A stretch of 47,524 bases of DNA from Deltaproteobacteria bacterium (GTDB lineage: Bacteria > Myxococcota_A > Polyangia > Polyangiales > JADJMO01), in contig JANYDK010000113.1 in the NCBI GenBank assembly GCA_025363655.1, positions 1 through 47,524 of the forward strand, written 5' to 3'. Positions 22,540 to 44,996 of the stretch are shown one piece after another. Numbering within the stretch: the first letter of the stretch is position 1; each line of letters begins with the position of its first letter. The notes under the pieces were generated by a model, which worked only from the letters and a program-made list of their open reading frames with translations, was not told the origin of the DNA and did no database searches. The position numbers and the translations under genes were made by a program.

Positions 22540-25269
22540 ATGGCCGAGCGCAAGACGCGCGCCGAGAACGAGGCCCTCGCGATGCTCGTCGCCGCTGCGA
22601 CGCGTGGGATCGTCGATGCGCGCGCGGTGGTCGAGGCGGCGGCCGAGGTCGGTCTTCGCGCCGCGCAGCTCGGAGACGCGGCGACGACGGAGGTCCTGCT
22701 CGAGGGCCTCCTTCCAGCCGATCAAATCGGCGGGGCGCTGGCGCACGGGAGCATCGTTCTCCAGACGATCGAGGCGCCGCCCTCGTCGCGCGGGCGGAGG
22801 TCGTTGCCACCCGCGCGCACCGTCGCACCGCCACCGCCGACGCCTCGCTTCGATGCTCGCTACGACGTGGCGATGGAGATCGGACGAGGTGGCGCCGGCA
22901 TCGTCGCCTCGGCGCACGACGGCGAAATCGGACGCACGGTGGCGATGAAGACGTTGCGCGTCGGAATCAACGCCGAACGCCATGAAATAGGGCGATTTCT
23001 CGATGAAGCTCGGGTCACCGGGCAGCTCGAGCATCCCGGCATCGTCCCCATCTACGACCTCGGACAGATGCCCGACGGACAGCCCTTCTACACGATGCGC
23101 ATCGTCGAGCGGCGCACGCTCCGCGAGGTCATCGGTGGGCTCGCCGAGCCGACGCGTCACGATTGGCCGCTCGCGCGCCTTTGTCACGTGATGGTGCAGG
23201 TGAGCCGCGCGCTCGACTACGCGCACAGGCGCGGCGTCGTCCATCGCGACATCAAACCGGAGAACATCTTGCTCGGGCACTTCGGCGAGGTCTACGTCGC
23301 CGATTGGGGAATCGCCAAGCGCGCCGACGCCGCACCAGGCTCGGCCCGCATGACCTCTGCCGGACACGTCGACAACGCGACGCTGATCGAGACGCACCAC
23401 GGCTCGCTCCTCGGCACGGTCGGCTACATGTCGCCCGAGCAAATCCTCGGTCGCGTCGTCGACGGCCGCTCCGACTTGTTCTCGCTCGGGGTCGTGCTCT
23501 ACGAGGTGCTGACCCACGGGCGCTCCCGTCCCTTCGTCGCGACGACGCCGATTCAAACGCTGCTCGCGACGGTCGAACGGCCTCCGCCGCGTCCGCGAGA
23601 GCTCGCCGCCGACTGTCCGCTGGTCCTCGAAGAGCTGTGCATGCGCCTCCTCGCGAAGGAACCGGACGATCGGCCGGCGAGCGGCGAGGCGGTGGCCGAA
23701 GAGATCGAGTCGTACCTCGAAGGTGACAAGGAGCGCGCGCGTCGAGAGGCCGAGGCGCTTCGCTTGGTCGCTGCCGCGCGCGCGCAAGTCGAGCGGCACG
23801 CGAGGCTCGATCTCGATCGCGAACGCCACCTCGCCGAATCGCGCACACTGCTCCGCGACTGCAAACCGCACGATCCGATCGACGGCAAGCGCGCCGGTTG
23901 GATCGCCGAAGATCGCGCCGGCGACGTCGCCATCGCCCAGGCCGATGCCCTCGCCCGCGCGCTCCACGCGTACTCGCAGGCGATCGGCCTCGCGCCGCAT
24001 GCCAAAGAGGTTCGCGGGGGCCTCGCCGATCTCTATTGGATGCGTTTCGAGCGTGCGACACGCGAGAACGACGCGGCGGCGCAGGCGTACCACGAGGCCC
24101 TGGTCCGCGAATGGGACGCGCCGGAGAATCGCTACGCGCCTCGACTCTCAGCCGACTCGTTTCTTTCGCTGCGCTCACACCCTGGCGGCGCCGAGGTCGT
24201 CGCCTTTCGCTTCGTCTCGCGCGATCGCGTGCTCGTCGCCGAAGATCCGTTCTCGCTCGGTCAGACGCCGATCGTGGAAGCCAGGCTGCCGCCGGGGAGC
24301 TATCTCCTGGTGCTGAAGCGCGAAGGCCATCGCGACACGCCGCTGCCCGTCGCCTGCCTTCGCGGTGAGCACCACCAGCTCGACGTCAACCTCTACACCG
24401 ACGCAGAAATCGGCGACGAGTTCGTCTACGTGCCAGGCGGGACGTGCATCGTCGGTGGCGATGCGGATGCCTTCGATGCTCTCCCGCGACGCGAGCTCGA
24501 CGTCCCCGACTTCACCATCGCGCGCCATCCCGTCACCTACGCCGAGTACCTCGCGTTCATCGACGATTTGTCGACGCGCGATCCGAAGGAGGCCGAGAAA
24601 CGCGTGCCTCGCGACGAATCGGGCGACGGGCTCTATGCCATGCGCGATCCAGACACCGGGAAATGGGTGCCTCGTTACGATCGCCTGATCGAAGGCGAAG
24701 GCCGTAAATTCTCGCCGATCGAGCGCGCGGGCGAGCTGCCGGTGATGGCCGTCGATTGGTTCGACGCGATGGCCTACGTGCGTTGGCGCGCTGCACGTGA
24801 CGCACGTGACGGACGCGACGGCGAAGTACGACTCCCGAGTGAAATCGAGTTCGAGAAGTGCGCCCGTGGAGTCGACGGGCGACGATTTCCTTGGGGCGAT
24901 CGGTTCGACGCGAGCTTCTGCAAGATGCGCGAGTCACGACGCGGCTTTCCGCAGCCCGAGCCCGTCGGCGCCTTCGCGGTCGATCGAGGTCCCTATGGGG
25001 TCGCCGATTTGTCGGGCGGCATGCGCGAGTGGGTGGCCGACATCTTCGTCGATGGCGTCGACGACGAGCTCTCCGTCGCAACTGCGCTCGCTGCCGAAGA
25101 GCCCGGTCCAAATCGGCCGCGCGACGAAGCAGGCATGCGCATGTCGCGCGGAGGTGCCTGGTGCGACGCCGCCATCAACACCCGCGCAGCCTCGCGCGTC
25201 CGCTATTTCACCATGTTCCGCACGACGCGCATCGGCTTCCGACGTCGGGGAACGTTGCCGCCGCGCTGA
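22540..25269 (+). CDS. Ser/Thr kinase fused to PEGA and FGE/SUMF1-like domains
   Basis: A 909-residue protein. An N-terminal helical region (1-70) and linker are followed by a kinase domain (about 108-400): GRGGAGIVAS loop, K137 (VAMK), HRDIKPENILL, DWG instead of DFG, and GTVGYMSPEQ. A helical section (about 410-560) leads to a PEGA-like beta segment (LPPGSYLLVLKREGHRD). The C-terminal quarter is an FGE/sulfatase-modifying-factor-like domain: FVYVPGGTCIVGG, ARHPVTYAEYLAF, EVRLPSEIEFEKCAR, RFPWGD, GVADLSGGMREW and SRGGAWCDA. The second copper-binding Cys of true FGE is absent after AWCDAAINTR, so formylglycine formation is doubtful. Such fusions are common in myxobacteria and planctomycetes. 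There is no membrane helix, so it is cytoplasmic. Confidence 0.93.
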   Translation: MAERKTRAENEALAMLVAAATRGIVDARAVVEAAAEVGLRAAQLGDAATTEVLLEGLLPADQIGGALAHGSIVLQTIEAPPSSRGRRSLPPARTVAPPPPTPRFDARYDVAMEIGRGGAGIVASAHDGEIGRTVAMKTLRVGINAERHEIGRFLDEARVTGQLEHPGIVPIYDLGQMPDGQPFYTMRIVERRTLREVIGGLAEPTRHDWPLARLCHVMVQVSRALDYAHRRGVVHRDIKPENILLGHFGEVYVADWGIAKRADAAPGSARMTSAGHVDNATLIETHHGSLLGTVGYMSPEQILGRVVDGRSDLFSLGVVLYEVLTHGRSRPFVATTPIQTLLATVERPPPRPRELAADCPLVLEELCMRLLAKEPDDRPASGEAVAEEIESYLEGDKERARREAEALRLVAAARAQVERHARLDLDRERHLAESRTLLRDCKPHDPIDGKRAGWIAEDRAGDVAIAQADALARALHAYSQAIGLAPHAKEVRGGLADLYWMRFERATRENDAAAQAYHEALVREWDAPENRYAPRLSADSFLSLRSHPGGAEVVAFRFVSRDRVLVAEDPFSLGQTPIVEARLPPGSYLLVLKREGHRDTPLPVACLRGEHHQLDVNLYTDAEIGDEFVYVPGGTCIVGGDADAFDALPRRELDVPDFTIARHPVTYAEYLAFIDDLSTRDPKEAEKRVPRDESGDGLYAMRDPDTGKWVPRYDRLIEGEGRKFSPIERAGELPVMAVDWFDAMAYVRWRAARDARDGRDGEVRLPSEIEFEKCARGVDGRRFPWGDRFDASFCKMRESRRGFPQPEPVGAFAVDRGPYGVADLSGGMREWVADIFVDGVDDELSVATALAAEEPGPNRPRDEAGMRMSRGGAWCDAAINTRAASRVRYFTMFRTTRIGFRRRGTLPPR

Positions 25270-32547: not shown

Positions 32548-33489
32548 ATGCACCACCATCGCCCCAAGATCGCGCTCATCGGCTCCGGCAACATCGGCGG
32601 CGAGCTCGCTGCCCTCTGCGCCCGGGAAGAGCTCGGTGACATCGTCCTCTTCGACATCCCCGAGAAGGAAGGCTTCGCCAAGGGCAAGGCGCTCGATCTC
32701 GAACAGAACGGCGCGGTCCTCGGCTACGACGTCAACATCACCGGCACCTCGAACCCGGAAGATCTGAAAGACGCCGACGTCGCCATCGTCACCGCCGGCG
32801 TGCCGCGCAAGCCGGGCATGAGCCGCGACGACTTGGTCGCGATCAACCTCAAGATTACCCGCGCGGTCGGCGAGAACCTGAAGAAGCACGCGCCGAACGC
32901 CTTCGTCATCGTCATCACCAACCCGCTCGACGCGATGGTCTACGAGATGAAGAAGGTCACCGGCTTCCCGCGCGAGCGCGTGGTCGGCATGGCCGGCGTG
33001 CTCGATTCCGCTCGTTTTCAGCTATTTCTCGCGCGTGAGGCGAAGGTCAGCACCAAAGACGTCCGCGCGATGGTGCTCGGCGGCCACGGCGACACGATGG
33101 TCCCGGTGCTCTCGTACGCGACCATCAACGGCGTCGGCGTCACGCAGCTGATCTCGAAAGAGAAGATCGACGCCATCGTCGCCCGCACCGCCAACGGCGG
33201 CGGCGAAATCGTCAAGCTGATGGGCACCAGCGCCTACTACGCGCCGGCGACCGCCGCCGTGCACATGGCCCGCGCGTACCTCGGCGACGAGAAGCGCATG
33301 CTCGCCTGTGCCGCGTACCTCGACGGCGAGTACGGCTACAAGGACATCTACATGGGCGTGCCCACCGTCATCGGAAAGGGCGGCGTCGAGAAAATCGTCG
33401 AAGTCGCGCTCACCGCCGAAGAGCGCGCGATGCTCGACAAGAGCGCCGCCGCGGTGAAAGAGCTCATCGGCGTCGCGCAGAAGCTCTAA
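32548..33489 (+). CDS. mdh: Malate dehydrogenase (LDH-like type)
   Basis: A 313-residue TCA-cycle enzyme oxidising malate to oxaloacetate with NAD. AGGAG lies 7 bases before the ATG. The Rossmann start [13 protein letters not shown] in IVLFDIPE (NAD selectivity), [15 protein letters not shown] (substrate-binding Arg), [10 protein letters not shown], the catalytic [10 protein letters not shown] (His) and the C-terminal [14 protein letters not shown] are all in place. It belongs to the LDH-like MDH3 group found in many bacteria. It is transcribed from a 97-base gap facing the divergent secreted-protein gene and ends in a hairpin. mdh and sucCD are separated by two opposite genes. Confidence 0.97.
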
Positions 33490-33508: not shown

Positions 33509-33546
33509 AGGTGCTCGTCGCGCAGGCGGCGGGCACTTCTACTTTT
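33509..33546 (+). terminator. Rho-independent terminator after mdh
   Basis: A 9-bp stem (33509-33517 with 33530-33538, two G-U pairs) and a 12-base loop are followed by CTACTTTTT. It begins 20 bases after the mdh stop, and its T run overlaps the end of the converging coiled-coil gene. Confidence 0.6.
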
Positions 33547-35116
33547 TGTCGCCTGACTCCCAGCCCTGACCCTCGGCGTCGGACGTCTCGTTCGGATCGA
33601 TGAGCTCGGCGTCGCTCGTGAGATCGATGGCCCCCGAGCTCGGCGGCGCCCTCGTCTTCGTCTTCGGCATCGGCGGCAGCGAGCGCTTGGCGTTGTCGAG
33701 CACGCCGATGAGCACACGGATTTCGCCGTCGTTCTTGTCACGCAGCGCGGCGAGCTCGTCGTCCCGCGACTTCAAATCGTCGAGGAGCGCGCCGATGCGC
33801 CTGCCGACGTTGACCGCACCGTCGAGCTGACCGGCGAGCGATCGCTCACGTGTCTCGAGATCGGCGAGCCGCGCGCTCAGCGACGAGAGCGCATTCGAGA
33901 GCCGATCGCGCTCACCGGTGACCGCCGCGAGCGAGGCGATTCGCGTCTGGTTCTCTTCACGGAGATCGGCGAGCGCCGCGTCGGCCTTCTCGAGGTTCCG
34001 ACGCGCCTCGAGCAGCTTGCTCTCGAGGCCGGTCGCGCGCGTGTCGGTGGCGTGCCGCAGCTCCGCGAGAATGCGCTCCTGCTCCTTGAGGAGAGAGGTC
34101 TGCGCCTGCTCGGCCTTCTCTTCCTGCGCCACCAGCGCGCTCTCGAGGGCCTTGAGCTTGGTCTTCGTTTCTTCGAGCGCGGCGGCTCCGGCGCGTGCTG
34201 CGGCGTCGGCTTCTTTCAGCTTCTTGTCGAGCGCGGCTTTCTCGGCACGGGCGCGATCGCGCTCTTGCACCAGCGTGCCGCGCGCAGACTCGGCGGCGGC
34301 GAGCTGCGTTCCCACCTGCGTCGCGTGCTCGTCGGCGGCGTTGATGCGCTCATCGAGCTCTCGCTCTTTCTTCTTCAGCGACGAGAGCTCGGCATCGGCA
34401 GCCGCTTGGCGATCGAGCAGCTCGAGGTTCCGCTCCTCGGCCGCGCGCGCACGTTCGGCGGCCTGCTCGGCGGCGCGCAGCTTGATGCGAGCCTCGTCGC
34501 GACTGGCTTCGATTTCCTCGTTGCGACGCGCGAGCGCACCGACCCTCGCCTCCGCCTCGACCGCGCGCACCGTCGCCTGTTGCAGCTCGGCGACCTTCTC
34601 TTGCTCGGCCTCGAGCTCGGTCGCCAGCTCGGCGATGGTGGTGTCGGAGGTCTCGAGCTTGGCGGCCATGTCGCGCCGGCCCTTCTCGCGAAGCTCGATT
34701 TCGGCAGCGCTGTCGGCGAGCGACTGCTCGGCCCGCTTGGCGCGCGACTCGAGCGAGGCAAGTCGCAAGAGCATCTGCGCGATGGTGTCGGCGTCGCCCG
34801 CGCGCTCCTGGCGCTCGCGCTCGAGCTCGATCGCCAGCTTGTCCATGTTGGGAACGGTGCGCTTGTCGCGCAGGGCCTTGGCCGCTGCCGGCTGCGGACG
34901 CACCGACTCGGGCGCGAGGCGCGGCGGATCGTCGATCGGCCGAGTGCGCTTCCCAGCCGGCGTCGTCACTGCCGCGCGCGTGGGAACCGAGAGGTCTTCG
35001 GCGGCGGGCGGCGCATCGGAGTCGGAGCGCGGATCTCGACGACGTGGTGCCGGCTGACTCGCCGCCATCCGCGACTTGGAGGCGCGCGTACGCGGTAGCT
35101 CCTTGGACTTGCCCAT
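33539..35116 (-). CDS. Long coiled-coil protein
   Basis: A 525-residue protein. The first 90 residues are Pro/Arg/Ala-rich and disordered. Residues about 95-440 form an almost unbroken coiled coil with heptads rich in Glu, Ala, Leu, Arg and Lys (for example ELATELEAEQEKVAELQQ and AAEQAAERARAAEERN). The C-terminal 80 residues end in an acidic tail (SDAELIDPNETSDAEGQ). There is no signal peptide or membrane helix. It could be a scaffold, cytoskeletal or chromosome-organising protein; the composition permits no more. The kinase-parvulin gene lies 29 bases upstream on the same strand, so co-transcription is likely and this protein may be a kinase client or scaffold. Confidence 0.75.
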   Translation of the reverse strand: MGKSKELPRTRASKSRMAASQPAPRRRDPRSDSDAPPAAEDLSVPTRAAVTTPAGKRTRPIDDPPRLAPESVRPQPAAAKALRDKRTVPNMDKLAIELERERQERAGDADTIAQMLLRLASLESRAKRAEQSLADSAAEIELREKGRRDMAAKLETSDTTIAELATELEAEQEKVAELQQATVRAVEAEARVGALARRNEEIEASRDEARIKLRAAEQAAERARAAEERNLELLDRQAAADAELSSLKKKERELDERINAADEHATQVGTQLAAAESARGTLVQERDRARAEKAALDKKLKEADAAARAGAAALEETKTKLKALESALVAQEEKAEQAQTSLLKEQERILAELRHATDTRATGLESKLLEARRNLEKADAALADLREENQTRIASLAAVTGERDRLSNALSSLSARLADLETRERSLAGQLDGAVNVGRRIGALLDDLKSRDDELAALRDKNDGEIRVLIGVLDNAKRSLPPMPKTKTRAPPSSGAIDLTSDAELIDPNETSDAEGQGWESGDKK

Positions 35117-35145: not shown

Positions 35146-36873
35146 TTACTCGGTACGCTTGATCAGGTGGTAGCCGAACTCGGTCTCCACGACCGGCGAC
35201 ACCGCGCCCACCGCAAGCAAGAAGGCCGCGTCCTCGAACGGCTTGACCATCGAACCCTTGCCGAAATGGCCTAAATCACCGCCCTTCACGTTGGTGGCGT
35301 CTTCGCTGTAGGTCCGCGCGAGGGTCGCGAAATCGGCGCCGGCTTTCACCTTCGCCGCGCACTCGTCGATGAGCTTGCGCGCGTCCGCCTTCGATCGTGA
35401 AGACGTCGAGCGCTTCGCCCCCTTCCAAGTGACGAAAATGTGGCTGGCGGCGATCTTGGCTTCGGCCGTCGCGGTCGGCGGCGGCACGGGCGGCACGGGC
35501 GGGACGGGCGCGACGCACGGGACCGCCGTGACGGTGGTGCCGAGTGGATCGCTCGCCGGCTTGGTCACCGTCTCGCCCGTCGGCCGCCGCTCGGTCGGCA
35601 AGTCGTCTTTCTTCTGCCGCGCGAGCTTGTCACGAACGATCCAGATCCCAATCGCCAACGTCACGATCACGGTGATGACGATCAGCCACTTCGGAGTCGG
35701 CGCCGGCGCCTTCGACTCGGCCTCGAGCAGCGGCTTCCTCGCACTCGACGTCGGCGCGACCATCACCGCCGCGGCCACGCGCTCGTCGGCCTTGGTGATC
35801 GCAGCGGGCGGCGTCAGCATCGGCATCGTCGCTTGCGCACTCATGTACGAGGGCGATGAGGGGGGTGCCTGTGATGGTGGCGGTGCCGGTGACGGAGGTG
35901 GCGGAGGTGGCGGAGGCGCGACCACGGTCGCAGCCATCGGCGACCAGGGAGGCACGACGGCAGGAATCTGGGTCGGCACCACCATCAGCGCGTGGACGTA
36001 CGTCTGGAACGCGACCTGCGCCTCGCGCGCGCTGGCGAATCGCTTCGTCGGATCACGATCGACACAGCGCGCGAACCATCGATCGAAGTCGACGTGCGGG
36101 ATCACTTGCGCCGCGAGCGCCTTCGCCCGCACCGTGGCGAGCGCAAGCGGCTCGAGAAGAATCTCCCGGAAAATTTGGGCAGAAGTGGCCCTCCCGACCG
36201 CCGACTCCCAGTAAATTTTTCCCGTGTGGAGATGAAACGCGAGGAGCCCGAGCGCCCAGACGTCGGTCGCCGGGGAGATCAACGCGCCGACCTCGCTCTG
36301 CTCCGGCGCCATCCAGAACGGCGTCCCGAGGAGGGCGGTGTTGGCGCCTCGCGACTCGGCCACCAGCTTGGCGATGCCGAAATCGAGCACCTTCACGTCC
36401 CAAAGGTCGTCGGTCCGTCGCGGCGTCGCCAGGAAGACGTTCTCCGGCTTGAGATCACGATGCACGATCCCGACGGCGTGCGCAGCGGCGATCGCGTGAC
36501 AGATGCCGGTGAAGATGGTCCCCAGCTCCTCGATCGGCAACGGCCCGCGTCGCTCGACGTAGGCGCGCAGCGTCTCGCCACGGAGCAGCTCCATCAGCAC
36601 CCACGGACGCTCGTCGTCGACGCCAGCGCCGATCACCTGCACCACGTGGTCGCTCTGGATCTGCGCGCCGACCTTCGCCTCGAGCACGAAGCGCTCACGC
36701 ATCCGAGGATCGGCCGCGAACGCCTCGTTCATCACCTTGAGCGCCCGCGTATGGCCGGTGGTGAGCTGCTTCACCTCGTAGACGGCGCCCATCCCACCGA
36801 CCGCGAGGCGTCGCACGATCTCGAGCTCGCCCGCGAACTTGCTCCCCGGCAGCAGCGCGCCCCCATCGCCCAT
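35146..36873 (-). CDS. Ser/Thr kinase - membrane helix - parvulin PPIase fusion
   Basis: A 575-residue protein. The kinase domain (about 13-290) has AVGGMGAVYEV, ALKVM (K46), HRDLKPENVFL, LDFGIAKL and GTPFWMAPEQ. A Pro-rich stretch (about 305-345) and a spacer lead to one membrane helix (WLIVITVIVTLAIGIWIV, 396-413), then a Lys/Arg-rich linker, Pro repeats (PVPPVPPVPPP) and a parvulin domain (473-575): ASHIFVTW, DFATLARTYSEDA, GGDLGHFGKGSMVKPFEDAAF and VVETEFGYHLIKR. Parvulins isomerise peptidyl-Pro bonds. If the kinase is inside, the PPIase is in the periplasm; the basic cluster after the helix, however, disagrees with the positive-inside rule. The PPIase may act as sensor or as an enzyme. 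Confidence 0.9.
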   Translation of the reverse strand: MGDGGALLPGSKFAGELEIVRRLAVGGMGAVYEVKQLTTGHTRALKVMNEAFAADPRMRERFVLEAKVGAQIQSDHVVQVIGAGVDDERPWVLMELLRGETLRAYVERRGPLPIEELGTIFTGICHAIAAAHAVGIVHRDLKPENVFLATPRRTDDLWDVKVLDFGIAKLVAESRGANTALLGTPFWMAPEQSEVGALISPATDVWALGLLAFHLHTGKIYWESAVGRATSAQIFREILLEPLALATVRAKALAAQVIPHVDFDRWFARCVDRDPTKRFASAREAQVAFQTYVHALMVVPTQIPAVVPPWSPMAATVVAPPPPPPPPSPAPPPSQAPPSSPSYMSAQATMPMLTPPAAITKADERVAAAVMVAPTSSARKPLLEAESKAPAPTPKWLIVITVIVTLAIGIWIVRDKLARQKKDDLPTERRPTGETVTKPASDPLGTTVTAVPCVAPVPPVPPVPPPTATAEAKIAASHIFVTWKGAKRSTSSRSKADARKLIDECAAKVKAGADFATLARTYSEDATNVKGGDLGHFGKGSMVKPFEDAAFLLAVGAVSPVVETEFGYHLIKRTE

Positions 36874-36989: not shown

Positions 36990-38162
36990 ATGAAGATCCA
37001 CGAGTACCAGGGAAAACTGCTGCTTGCGAAGTATGGCGTGCCGATCCCGAAGGGGTATCCGGCGTTCACCGTCGACGAGGCAGAAGCCGCCGGCAAGCGC
37101 CTCCTCGACGAGACCAAAGGAGCGGTCGTCGTCGTCAAGGCGCAGATCCACGCCGGTGGTCGCGGCAAGGGCGGCGGCGTCAAGGTCGTCAAAGGCCCCG
37201 ACGTACGCGCCACCGCCGAGAAGATCCTCGGCATGCAGCTCGTCACCCACCAGACGGGGCCGGTCGGGCAGAAGGTCCGCCGCCTCTACATCGAGCAAGG
37301 CCTCGACATCGCGCGCGAGCTCTACCTCGGCATGCTCACCGATCGCGACACCCGTCGCGTAGCCGTCATCGCCTCCACCGAAGGCGGGATGGAGATCGAG
37401 AAGGTCGCCGAAGAGCACCCCGAGAAAATCCTCACCTTCCACGTCGATCCGACGGTCGGCCTCGCCGCGCACCAAGCGCGCGAGCTCGGGTTCGCACTCG
37501 GCCTCGGCAAGGAGTCGATCGGCAAGTTCGTGAAGCTCCTCTCGTCGCTCTACGAGATGTTCATGAAAGAGGACTGCTCGATGGCGGAAGTGAACCCGCT
37601 GGTCGTCCTCAAGAACGGCGACGTCGCCGCACTCGACGCCAAGATCACCTTCGACGACAACGCCGACTTCCGTCACCCCGAGTGGAAGACGTTGCGCGAC
37701 GCCGACGAAGAAGATCCCGTCGAGCTCGAGGCGAAGGACGCCGGCCTCAACTACGTCTCGCTCGACGGCAACATCGGGTGTCTCGTCAACGGCGCCGGCC
37801 TCGCGATGGCGACGATGGACGTCATCCAGCTCGAAGGCGGCAAGCCCGCCAACTTCCTCGACGTCGGCGGCGGCGCGACGAAAGATCAGGTCGAGAAGGC
37901 CTTCAAGATGATCCTCCAGTCACCCAAGGTGAAGGGCATCTTCGTCAACATCTTCGGCGGCATCATGCGCTGCGACGTCATCGCCGAGGGCGTCGTCGCC
38001 GCGGCCAAGGGCCTCGACATCAAGGTCCCGATCGTCGTCCGCCTCGAGGGCACCAACGTCGAGCTCGGCAAGCAGATCCTGCGCGACAGCGGGCTCGCCA
38101 TCACGCCGGCCGACACCATGGCCGACGGCGCGAAGAAGCTCGTCTCCTCGATCTCCAAGTAG
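36990..38162 (+). CDS. sucC: Succinyl-CoA synthetase subunit beta
   Basis: A 390-residue ADP- or GDP-forming ligase subunit. The ATG at 36990 starts the family-typical [22 protein letters not shown]. The ATP-grasp domain has [12 protein letters not shown] (nucleotide-binding loop) and a metal-binding MAEVNPLVV; the C-terminal half has [28 protein letters not shown] and [14 protein letters not shown]. With SucD it converts succinyl-CoA and phosphate to succinate and nucleoside triphosphate. It is 18 bases upstream of sucD, one operon. The start lies about 115 bases from the divergent kinase-parvulin start, so the two promoters share that gap. Nucleotide preference is not predictable by eye. 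Confidence 0.97.
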
Positions 38163-42623: not shown

Positions 42624-42764
42624 GCTTTCGGGCGACGCTCCTCGCTGTTGCCCCTCGCGGGACGCTCCTTTACTTTTAGGGCCCGTGCTTCGCGCGCCCA
42701 CGCACAGCTCGTGCTCGGCACGCCGCGTCTTCGTGGCGAGGCCTCGTCGTATGCTGGAGGGCGC

Positions 42765-44996
42765 GTGAGCCAGCGGTTCCTTCGCTGTCCGCATTGCGGC
42801 CTCCCGCACGCGATCGACGACGTCGCTTGTGGAGTGACGGGCCGCCCGCTCGAACCACGCAAAGGCGCGCGCGTCGCCCCGATGCCGGCGCCTTCGCCGG
42901 CCGAGAGCGTCGGCCGCTTGCAGGTGGCGATGCCGGTAGCGATCCCGGTCTCGAAACATCCTTCGCAGCAGCGCCTGAGCCCGCCCTCGGCGCCGGCGAT
43001 CCCTGCGCAGAAGTCACTAGCGCCCTTCGACACCGGACCGCCGCCGCCCGACTCGTCCATCCTCGGTCAGACGCTGGGCGGGAAATATCGGGCGATTCGC
43101 GTCCTCGGCGAAGGCGGAATGGGCACCGTCTACGAGTGCGAGCACATCCAGCTGCATCGCAAGGTCGCGGTGAAGGTGCTCCACCCGGCGCAGGTCCGGA
43201 AGAAGGCCTCGGTGCAACGCTTCCACCACGAAGCGCAGGTCGCCGGCGCCATCGGTCACCCGAACATCTGCGAAATCTACGACATCGGTGAGGGCGACGG
43301 CGGCGCGCCGTTCCTCGTCATGGAGCTCCTCACCGGCGAGACGCTCGCCGATCGCATCGCCAGCGAGGGTGCGCTGCCCTTCGACGATTTGGTCGAGGTC
43401 ATCTCGCAGGTGCTCTCCGGTCTCATCGCCGCGCACGACAAAGGCATCATCCATCGCGACATCAAGCCGGAGAACATCTTCCTCTCGTCGCGGCCAGGCA
43501 TCGGTCCGCTCGCGAAGATCCTCGACTTCGGCATCTCCAAGGTCGCCGGCGCCGACGATTTGCACCTCACGCGCACCGGCATGGTGATGGGCACGCCGTT
43601 CTACATGTCGCCCGAACAGGCGCGCGGCGATCGCACGCTCGATCACCGCGTCGACATCTACGCCACCGGCGTCATGACCTACGAGTGCCTCACCGGTCGT
43701 CGACCCTTCACCGCCGCCAACTACAACGCGCTCTTGGTGCAAATCCTCACCACCAACGCGCGTCCGCCGCACGAGATACGTCCGGCGGTTCCCGAGGCGT
43801 TCGAAGAGTTCGTCGCCAAGGCGATGCACCGCGAACGCGACAAGCGCTACGCCAACACCATCGAAATGCAGCGCGCGCTCGTGCAGCTGCGTGACCCGGC
43901 GGCGATCCAGCAGCGTCGCATCGCCTCCATCCCGCCCGAGCCGGTGCCGCTGGTGACGACCAAGCGCGCGGGCGATCCGACGCCTCCGCGGAAGATGAAC
44001 GAACCGGTCGAGGCGCGTCGCGAGCTCGAGCTGCCTGCGGTCTCGGTCAACATCGAAGGGCACGATCTGCTCGACAGCGGGCAGCAGAACGTGGCCGATT
44101 CGGTCGAGGTACCGGTCGCGGTCGAGCCTCGTCGTGACGAGCGACGTCATCTGGCGCAACCGGTGGCCCGACCCGCGCCGCAACCTGCACAAAAACCGGT
44201 CGAAGCGCGACGACCGGCACCGGCAGCTCCACCGATCGAACGACGTGCGGCTCCGGCGCCTCCGCCGATTCCCCGGCCTGCCGCGACCGCGCCGCTGCGT
44301 TCACCGAGCGTGCCTCCCGCGGCGCCGAGGGCGGGGATCCCTGCGCGCGTGATCAACCCGAGGGCGCCGATTCCTCCAAGGCCGGTCGCGACCGCGCCGA
44401 CGAGCGCGAACCGCCCGTCGATTCCTCCGCCGCTGCCGAGTCAGCGCAAAGCACGAATGATCACGCCGACGCCGACGCCGGTCGATCCGCGCCTCTTGCA
44501 CGCGTTCGCAGCACGACAGAACGCGCCCCCCGCGCTCGATGCTCCGTGGCTCAACGATGGCGACGATCCCACGGAAATCGGGGAGATTCCGCGTCACGAG
44601 CCGAGCGACGTGACCCCCTACCCGACGGAAGGTCGACGCATCGATCCCGACTCCACCGAGCGCATCGATCCTCCGCGCCTCGGCAAGCTCGGGCGTCGTC
44701 CCCGCGCGGCGTTGCGTGAGCCGGGTCTCCCCGAGCCGCGTCGCGAGCTCGGAGGTGTCCGTGCGCCGACCCCGGAACAGCTCCATCGCCCGGCTGAAGA
44801 ACCGTCGCACGCCGATCGCTGGGAAGACGAGGCGCCGACCACGCTCTTCGATCGCAAGCAGCTGAAGTCGACGCCAGGAGGAGGCGCCGTGCGGGCGTCG
44901 ACCACCGAGCGGGCTCCGGCACCGACGGGCCTCGGACGCACGCCGGCACCCGACGAGCCGAGGCCGCCGGCGATTCCGCGCGCACCGCGGCGTTAG
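42765..44996 (+). CDS. Ser/Thr kinase with N-terminal Cys motif and disordered tail
   Basis: A 743-residue kinase from GTG 42765, preceded by GGAGG. The N-terminus has a Cys motif (CPHC at 8-11, C22), perhaps half of a zinc ribbon, then a Pro-rich linker. The kinase domain (about 108-370) has LGEGGMGTVYEC, VAVKVL (K137), HRDIKPENIFL (D232), LDFGISKV and GTPFYMSPEQARGD. The last 370 residues are Pro/Arg/Ala/Glu-rich and disordered, with repeated Pro-Ala-Pro patterns. There is no membrane helix, so this is a cytoplasmic kinase whose tail may bind partners or carry phosphosites. It follows pcnB by about 140 bases. Confidence 0.92.
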   Translation: MSQRFLRCPHCGLPHAIDDVACGVTGRPLEPRKGARVAPMPAPSPAESVGRLQVAMPVAIPVSKHPSQQRLSPPSAPAIPAQKSLAPFDTGPPPPDSSILGQTLGGKYRAIRVLGEGGMGTVYECEHIQLHRKVAVKVLHPAQVRKKASVQRFHHEAQVAGAIGHPNICEIYDIGEGDGGAPFLVMELLTGETLADRIASEGALPFDDLVEVISQVLSGLIAAHDKGIIHRDIKPENIFLSSRPGIGPLAKILDFGISKVAGADDLHLTRTGMVMGTPFYMSPEQARGDRTLDHRVDIYATGVMTYECLTGRRPFTAANYNALLVQILTTNARPPHEIRPAVPEAFEEFVAKAMHRERDKRYANTIEMQRALVQLRDPAAIQQRRIASIPPEPVPLVTTKRAGDPTPPRKMNEPVEARRELELPAVSVNIEGHDLLDSGQQNVADSVEVPVAVEPRRDERRHLAQPVARPAPQPAQKPVEARRPAPAAPPIERRAAPAPPPIPRPAATAPLRSPSVPPAAPRAGIPARVINPRAPIPPRPVATAPTSANRPSIPPPLPSQRKARMITPTPTPVDPRLLHAFAARQNAPPALDAPWLNDGDDPTEIGEIPRHEPSDVTPYPTEGRRIDPDSTERIDPPRLGKLGRRPRAALREPGLPEPRRELGGVRAPTPEQLHRPAEEPSHADRWEDEAPTTLFDRKQLKSTPGGGAVRASTTERAPAPTGLGRTPAPDEPRPPAIPRAPRR

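What the first reader, a model, noticed from the sequence alone, without database searches (positions are those of the whole stretch)
35146..36873. Kinase - transmembrane - parvulin fusion
Seen: complete Hanks-kinase motifs, one membrane helix, and a full-looking parvulin PPIase domain at the C-terminus. Kinases usually carry PASTA, WD or similar sensor domains; a PPIase tail is unusual. Inference: the PPIase may sense or fold exported proteins and report to the kinase. The coiled-coil gene 29 bases downstream is a candidate client.
Basis: partly seen in the sequence, partly recalled or inferred. Interest (0 to 1): 0.65.

Follow-up and report, generated by a model that had tools for sequence, protein, structure and literature searches.

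The report
Membrane kinase with parvulin isomerase tail
A myxobacterium-type genome encodes one protein that joins a signalling kinase, a membrane helix and a complete prolyl-isomerase (protein-folding) domain; it looks like a typical modular receptor kinase that took its outside part from a lipoprotein foldase, and no second example was found in the relatives searched.

Summary
One uninterrupted 575-codon ORF (minus strand, 35146-36873) encodes a Hanks kinase (19-280), a proline-rich juxtamembrane stretch, one membrane helix (395-413) and a complete parvulin (470-574) with its catalytic residues. Both stated refutations fail: no frameshift and no lost active-site residue. The parvulin models confidently (pLDDT 91) and matches human Pin1's catalytic domain best.

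What it is: a bitopic receptor-type Ser/Thr kinase from a clade whose tails are swapped. The closest kinases in the same taxonomic family share the layout but carry FGE-sulfatase-like or other tails. The tail's nearest relative is a stand-alone lipoprotein parvulin in the same genome (66%); all five same-family relatives examined have lipoprotein signals. So the tail is most likely periplasmic and probably arose when a kinase-helix module replaced a lipoprotein signal.

No second kinase-parvulin fusion turned up among 189 parvulin loci tested, drawn from several hundred Myxococcota genomes and a wider collection. Independent fusions elsewhere are not excluded. The downstream coiled-coil gene is a lineage orphan; its role as kinase substrate is conjecture. 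Best mechanism: the parvulin binds exported proline-containing chains and tunes kinase dimerisation.

The parts
35146..36873 (-). Complete fusion gene, 575 aa: kinase - juxtamembrane - helix - linker - parvulin
36034..36819 (-). Hanks-type Ser/Thr kinase domain (residues 19-280), all catalytic motifs present
   Evidence: Pfam PF00069 E 8.7e-41; motif positions; best solved relatives StkP, PknA, PknB kinase domains
35692..36027 (-). Juxtamembrane segment (residues 283-394), 28 Pro in 112 residues, five Ser/Thr-Pro sites
35635..35691 (-). Single transmembrane helix (residues 395-413)
   Evidence: hydropathy scan, mean KD 2.41; same position in sister kinases
35467..35634 (-). Basic then Pro/Ala/Val-rich linker (residues 414-469); from residue 435 it aligns with the linker of the own-genome lipoprotein parvulin
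35152..35466 (-). Parvulin PPIase domain (residues 470-574), catalytic residues intact
   Evidence: PF13616 E 4.9e-29; alignment of 162 domains; model pLDDT 90.8; Pin1 TM-score 0.90
33539..35116 (-). Co-directional coiled-coil protein, 525 aa, 29 bases downstream; orphan, no signal peptide apparent
32548..33489 (+). Malate dehydrogenase (mdh), convergent neighbour; directly before sucC in 8 of 20 relatives read
36990..38162 (+). Succinyl-CoA synthetase beta (sucC), divergent neighbour, 116 bases from the kinase start

Best explanation
It is a bitopic receptor-like Hanks kinase: kinase domain in the cytoplasm, one helix in the inner membrane, parvulin in the periplasm. The parvulin tail was probably acquired from a periplasmic lipoprotein parvulin of the same lineage (signal peptide replaced by kinase plus helix). 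Most likely the parvulin binds proline-containing segments of exported or unfolded envelope proteins, and occupancy changes the dimerisation or spacing of the kinases, so that envelope folding load is reported to cytoplasmic substrates. Shown: continuous gene, intact motifs of both enzymes, helix, parvulin fold, lipoprotein signals of the tail's relatives, tail swapping among sister kinases. Inferred: topology, catalytic activity, sensing, dimerisation, substrates.
For: Intact kinase and parvulin motifs and parvulin fold. Nearest relative of the tail is the own-genome 182-aa lipoprotein parvulin, 66%, with similarity starting in the linker at residue 435 (58%). All five same-family relatives of this parvulin that were read (L001, L017, L169, L170, L176) show a lipobox-like signal and a Pro/Ala/Ser linker. 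The closest kinases in the family share kinase-juxtamembrane-helix and carry FGE-sulfatase (two tested, E 2e-29 and 2e-30) or other tails of 179-265 aa after the helix, so the tail position is a sensor slot; another kinase in the window (22540-25269) carries FGE-sulfatase.
Against: The flank after the helix is strongly basic (7 K/R, 4 D/E in 20 residues, against 3 and 2 before it), which runs against the positive-inside rule for a C-outside tail; most sister kinases show no clear charge bias either way. Nothing ties PPIase occupancy to kinase activity. The fusion is a single case, so there is no comparative evidence that the two parts evolve together.
Confidence: 0.5

Rival explanations
1. Anchored foldase: the parvulin does ordinary periplasmic folding work, held at the inner membrane like PpiD, and the kinase merely anchors it or regulates something unrelated; no sensing through the parvulin.
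For: The tail is catalytically intact rather than degenerate, and its relatives are stand-alone foldase-like lipoproteins. A pure binding sensor would not need the full catalytic set.
Against: An intact kinase with full motifs is a costly anchor, and sister kinases put varied domains in the same slot.
Confidence: 0.25
2. Kinase-Pin1 in one chain: the parvulin is phospho-specific and isomerises Ser/Thr-Pro sites made by its own kinase, such as the five in the juxtamembrane segment; both enzymes would have to meet on one side of the membrane.
For: Best structural matches are Pin1-type catalytic domains. The loop carries Lys487-Arg488 where Pin1 has Arg68-Arg69; a basic pair there occurs in 5 of 60 relatives with this kind of loop. 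Juxtamembrane Ser/Thr-Pro sites; basic flank after the helix.
Against: One membrane helix separates the two domains; the nearest parvulins are exported lipoproteins; Pin1 Lys63 is Thr here, no WW domain, loop about six residues shorter than Pin1's. Alignment in the loop is gapped and uncertain.
Confidence: 0.07
3. Recent neutral domain shuffling in a very large kinome: the fusion is expressed weakly or has no special role.
For: Single case in the genomes searched; the own genome gives at least 151 matches to the query, most of them kinases, and its relatives recombine tails freely.
Against: All catalytic residues of both enzymes are kept, and the parvulin has diverged to 66% from its nearest relative without losing one, which suggests selection.
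Confidence: 0.15
4. Artefact: mis-assembly or a frameshift joining a kinase gene and a parvulin gene.
For: Draft assembly of 150 contigs; no orthologue of the joined gene found.
Against: No frameshift; one frame; uniform third-position GC; a plausible linker and helix lie between the domains; the own-genome parvulin relative is on another contig and only 66% identical, so it is not a collapsed copy.
Confidence: 0.03

Closest known systems
PknB/StkP/PrkC family receptor kinases
   Same: Hanks kinase, juxtamembrane segment, one helix, C-terminal domain beyond it; the kinase domain's best solved relatives are StkP, PknA, PknB
   Different: No PASTA repeats; the tail is an enzyme-type parvulin; NCBIfam PknB_PASTA score 187.8 against a cut-off of 450
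Sister kinases of the same taxonomic family with FGE-sulfatase-like tails (L057, L059 tested; L058, L060, L063, L064 by eye)
   Same: Kinase domain up to 54% identical, same juxtamembrane-helix-tail layout
   Different: Tail is FGE-sulfatase-like or another domain, never parvulin in those read
Lipoprotein parvulin of the own genome (L001, 182 aa)
   Same: 66% identical parvulin domain, Pro-rich linker, same catalytic set
   Different: Has a lipobox signal peptide instead of kinase and helix; the gene stands alone
PpiD and PrsA (membrane-attached parvulins; anchors described in PMC4922055)
   Same: Membrane-attached parvulin facing outward (inferred here)
   Different: No kinase; PpiD's helix is N-terminal and PrsA is a lipoprotein
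Pin1 / Ess1 parvulins
   Same: Closest fold match (TM-score 0.90, 37-40% identity over the domain), Pin1-like catalytic residues
   Different: No WW domain, shorter loop, Lys63 not conserved, Phe in place of Ser154

Membership tests
Hanks-type Ser/Thr kinase | Gly loop, Lys, alphaC Glu, HRDxKxxN, DFG, APE | tested here: met
   Pfam E 8.7e-41
Hanks-type Ser/Thr kinase | Phosphotransfer activity on Ser/Thr | not testable with these tools
   needs an assay
PASTA receptor kinase (PknB/StkP) | Extracellular PASTA repeats | tested here: not met
   No PASTA hit in Pfam; NCBIfam PknB_PASTA far below cut-off
Bitopic receptor kinase | One helix between kinase and C-terminal domain | tested here: met
Bitopic receptor kinase | C-terminal domain outside the cytoplasm | tested here: inconclusive
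   Lipoprotein relatives favour it; basic flank after the helix does not
Parvulin PPIase | Parvulin fold | tested here: met
   Rotamase_3 E 4.9e-29; model pLDDT 90.8; TM-score 0.90 to Pin1
Parvulin PPIase | Active-site residues (His59, Cys/Asp113, Leu122, Met130, Phe134, Thr152, His157 of Pin1) | tested here: met
Parvulin PPIase | Prolyl cis-trans isomerase activity | not testable with these tools
   needs an assay
Pin1-type phospho-specific parvulin | WW domain | tested here: not met
   no WW hit in Pfam
Pin1-type phospho-specific parvulin | Phosphate-binding Lys63, Arg68, Arg69 | tested here: inconclusive
   Thr, Lys, Arg here; loop alignment gapped
PpiD / SurA foldase | N-terminal helix or SurA-N-like chaperone domain joined to parvulin | tested here: not met
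   N-terminus is a kinase; no such domain

The most novel reading that the evidence does not exclude
A single-chain writer-and-isomerase: a Ser/Thr kinase carrying its own Pin1-like phospho-specific parvulin, which isomerises the Ser/Thr-Pro sites the kinase has phosphorylated, in cis or on the coiled-coil partner.
Probability: 0.06. Interest if true: 0.8.

Novelty: new variant of a known kind. Interest (0 to 1): 0.38.

Why it matters
If the parvulin gates the kinase, this would be a one-protein route from periplasmic protein folding to Ser/Thr phosphorylation in the cytoplasm, with an enzyme of folding as the receptor. More generally, the gene shows how the very large kinomes of myxobacterium-type genomes grow: a constant kinase-helix module is joined to tails that can also exist as stand-alone exported proteins, so a tail's free-standing relative may point to the signal.

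Tried and rejected
Frameshift or gene-joining artefact: rejected on the continuous frame and uniform codon-position GC. Other kinase-parvulin fusions: long open frames around parvulin matches in the order, class and phylum were fetched and the genome-contig scan added 80 loci; of 197 parvulin-bearing frames in 189 loci only copies of the window gene also held a kinase. Many long open frames in these G+C-rich genomes are chance extensions upstream of short lipoprotein genes. Plasmid records: no place covering 80% of the query. A kinase gene seemed to neighbour a parvulin gene in two genomes (L245, L246), but the parvulin there is a short lipoprotein gene more than 1 kb away, so this was dropped. 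Conservation of the coiled-coil partner: none in the family or among 115 genomes of the order with its C-terminal segment; a first order-wide search failed. The tree of parvulin domains does not resolve where the fused domain branches, so descent from the own-genome relative rests on identity only. A scan of Planctomycetota was not possible. Literature searches for kinase-PPIase fusions found none in the papers held; the main myxobacterial kinome paper was not held.

Full report
OBSERVATION. The finding gives no strand; the gene is on the minus strand, 35146-36873, one ORF of 575 codons. Pfam places Pkinase at 19-280 (E 8.7e-41) and Rotamase_3 at 470-574 (E 4.9e-29) in the same frame. The kinase motifs are complete: GGMGAVYEV (26-34), the Lys of ALKV, a Glu in the alphaC region, HRDLKPEN, DFG, APE and the subdomain XI Arg. 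The start fits the sister kinases, which begin with a similar short lead. A helix of mean Kyte-Doolittle 2.41 lies at 395-413 and is the strongest after the kinase. Third-position GC is even across the ORF apart from a proline run, so nothing suggests a frameshift or a foreign join.

PARVULIN DOMAIN. In an alignment of 162 relatives, the positions of Pin1 H59, C113, L122, M130, F134, T152 and H157 read H478, D525, L, M542, F546, T564, H569 (the Pin1 chain used as ruler is the C113D mutant 2rud, so native Cys113 is compared from general knowledge). AlphaFold2 on a 20-row alignment gives pLDDT 90.8, with the expected order of strands and helices. The best solved matches are Pin1 catalytic domains (TM-score 0.90, 37-40% identity), followed by Ess1, TbPin1, PrsA and NmPin. 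Sequence search alone ranks archaeal parvulins and PrsA next to Pin1. So the domain is a full parvulin. It has a Pin1-like loop with Lys487-Arg488 at the place of Pin1 Arg68-Arg69, but Thr at Lys63 and a shorter loop; a basic pair there is found in 5 of 60 relatives with this kind of loop. This is a hint, not a test, of phospho-specificity.

WHERE THE TAIL COMES FROM. The closest parvulin among the genomes of the order, class and phylum searched is in the same genome: a 182-aa protein with a lipobox (MRGLRSTLAVVTSLFLLSGC), a Pro/Ala-rich linker and a parvulin of 66% identity. With the whole fusion as query the similarity begins at residue 435, inside the linker (58%). The same-family relatives read (L017, L169, L170, L176) also show lipoprotein-type signals. 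A second group of relatives, about 110 aa, starts almost at the parvulin and has Cys at the 113 position; the fused domain has Asp, as the lipoprotein group has Asp or Glu there. The tree is too short of columns to place the fused domain. The reading that a kinase-helix module took the place of a lipoprotein signal is therefore an inference from identity, linker and residue type.

WHERE THE KINASE COMES FROM. Sister kinases in the same taxonomic family are up to 54% identical over the kinase and share juxtamembrane segment and helix. Their tails differ: FGE-sulfatase in several (two tested by Pfam, E 2e-29 and 2e-30), and tails without a Pfam match in others. Another kinase in this window, at 22540-25269, carries FGE-sulfatase, and 42648-44996 encodes a third kinase. 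The fusion is thus one product of tail swapping in a large kinome.

HOW RARE. Parvulin matches were listed for 183 genomes of the order, 289 of the class and 377 of the phylum (overlapping sets), and all Rotamase_3 matches of the family were listed and fetched. Long open frames with a parvulin were fetched and tested for a kinase, together with 80 loci from genome contigs. Of 197 parvulin frames in 189 loci, only copies of the window gene held a kinase. Limits: only the best-scoring part of each match list is shown, so a fusion with a more distant parvulin could have been missed, and other kinase-rich phyla were not searched as whole genomes. The literature held shows no such fusion, but the key kinome paper is not in it.

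NEIGHBOURHOOD. In 8 of 20 relatives read, mdh directly precedes sucC. Here the kinase-parvulin gene and the coiled-coil gene lie between them on the other strand, convergent to mdh and divergent from sucC. Neither gene was found near sucC in the four same-family genomes, though some of those stretches are short. The coiled-coil protein has no homologue above threshold in the family or, by its C-terminal 93 residues, in 115 genomes of the order. Close spacing and a GGAGGG stretch before its ATG suggest co-expression. It has only one Ser/Thr-Pro site. It may be a kinase substrate in the cytoplasm; it cannot be a client of a periplasmic parvulin if it stays in the cytoplasm.

MECHANISM. Shown: gene, motifs, helix, fold, relatives. 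Inferred: cytoplasmic kinase, periplasmic parvulin, binding of proline-containing exported chains, change of kinase dimerisation, phosphorylation of cytoplasmic targets. The basic stretch after the helix (RDKLARQKKDDLPTERR) is the main structural doubt about the topology. If the tail were cytoplasmic after all, the kinase-Pin1 reading would become serious, since the juxtamembrane segment holds five Ser/Thr-Pro sites.

VERDICT. Real, unusual, well-formed; a new variant of the receptor-kinase plan, not a new kind of system. Interest is moderate because it is a single case and the coupling of the two enzymes is untested.

Noticed in passing
22540-25269 (+): A second Ser/Thr kinase in the window ends in an FGE-sulfatase (formylglycine-generating enzyme-like) domain.
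   Followed up: partly
42648-44996 (+): A third Ser/Thr kinase gene in the same window, with no other Pfam domain found besides kinase-like ones.
   Followed up: no
33539-35116 (-): Long coiled-coil orphan protein with weak SMC-like similarity only; no homologue in the family or in 115 genomes of the order.
   Followed up: partly
L061 (G000:C7, kinase match at 96696-97904): A sister kinase of the same genome has a Gly-rich tail ending in a Cys-containing domain without Pfam match that resembles, from memory, AgmX/TonB-like C-termini of myxobacterial proteins.
   Followed up: no
L007-L034 and similar loci: Many genomes of the order carry parvulins of about 110 aa with no signal peptide apparent and Cys at the Pin1 113 position ('SDCPS'), close to a bare Pin1 catalytic domain.
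   Followed up: partly
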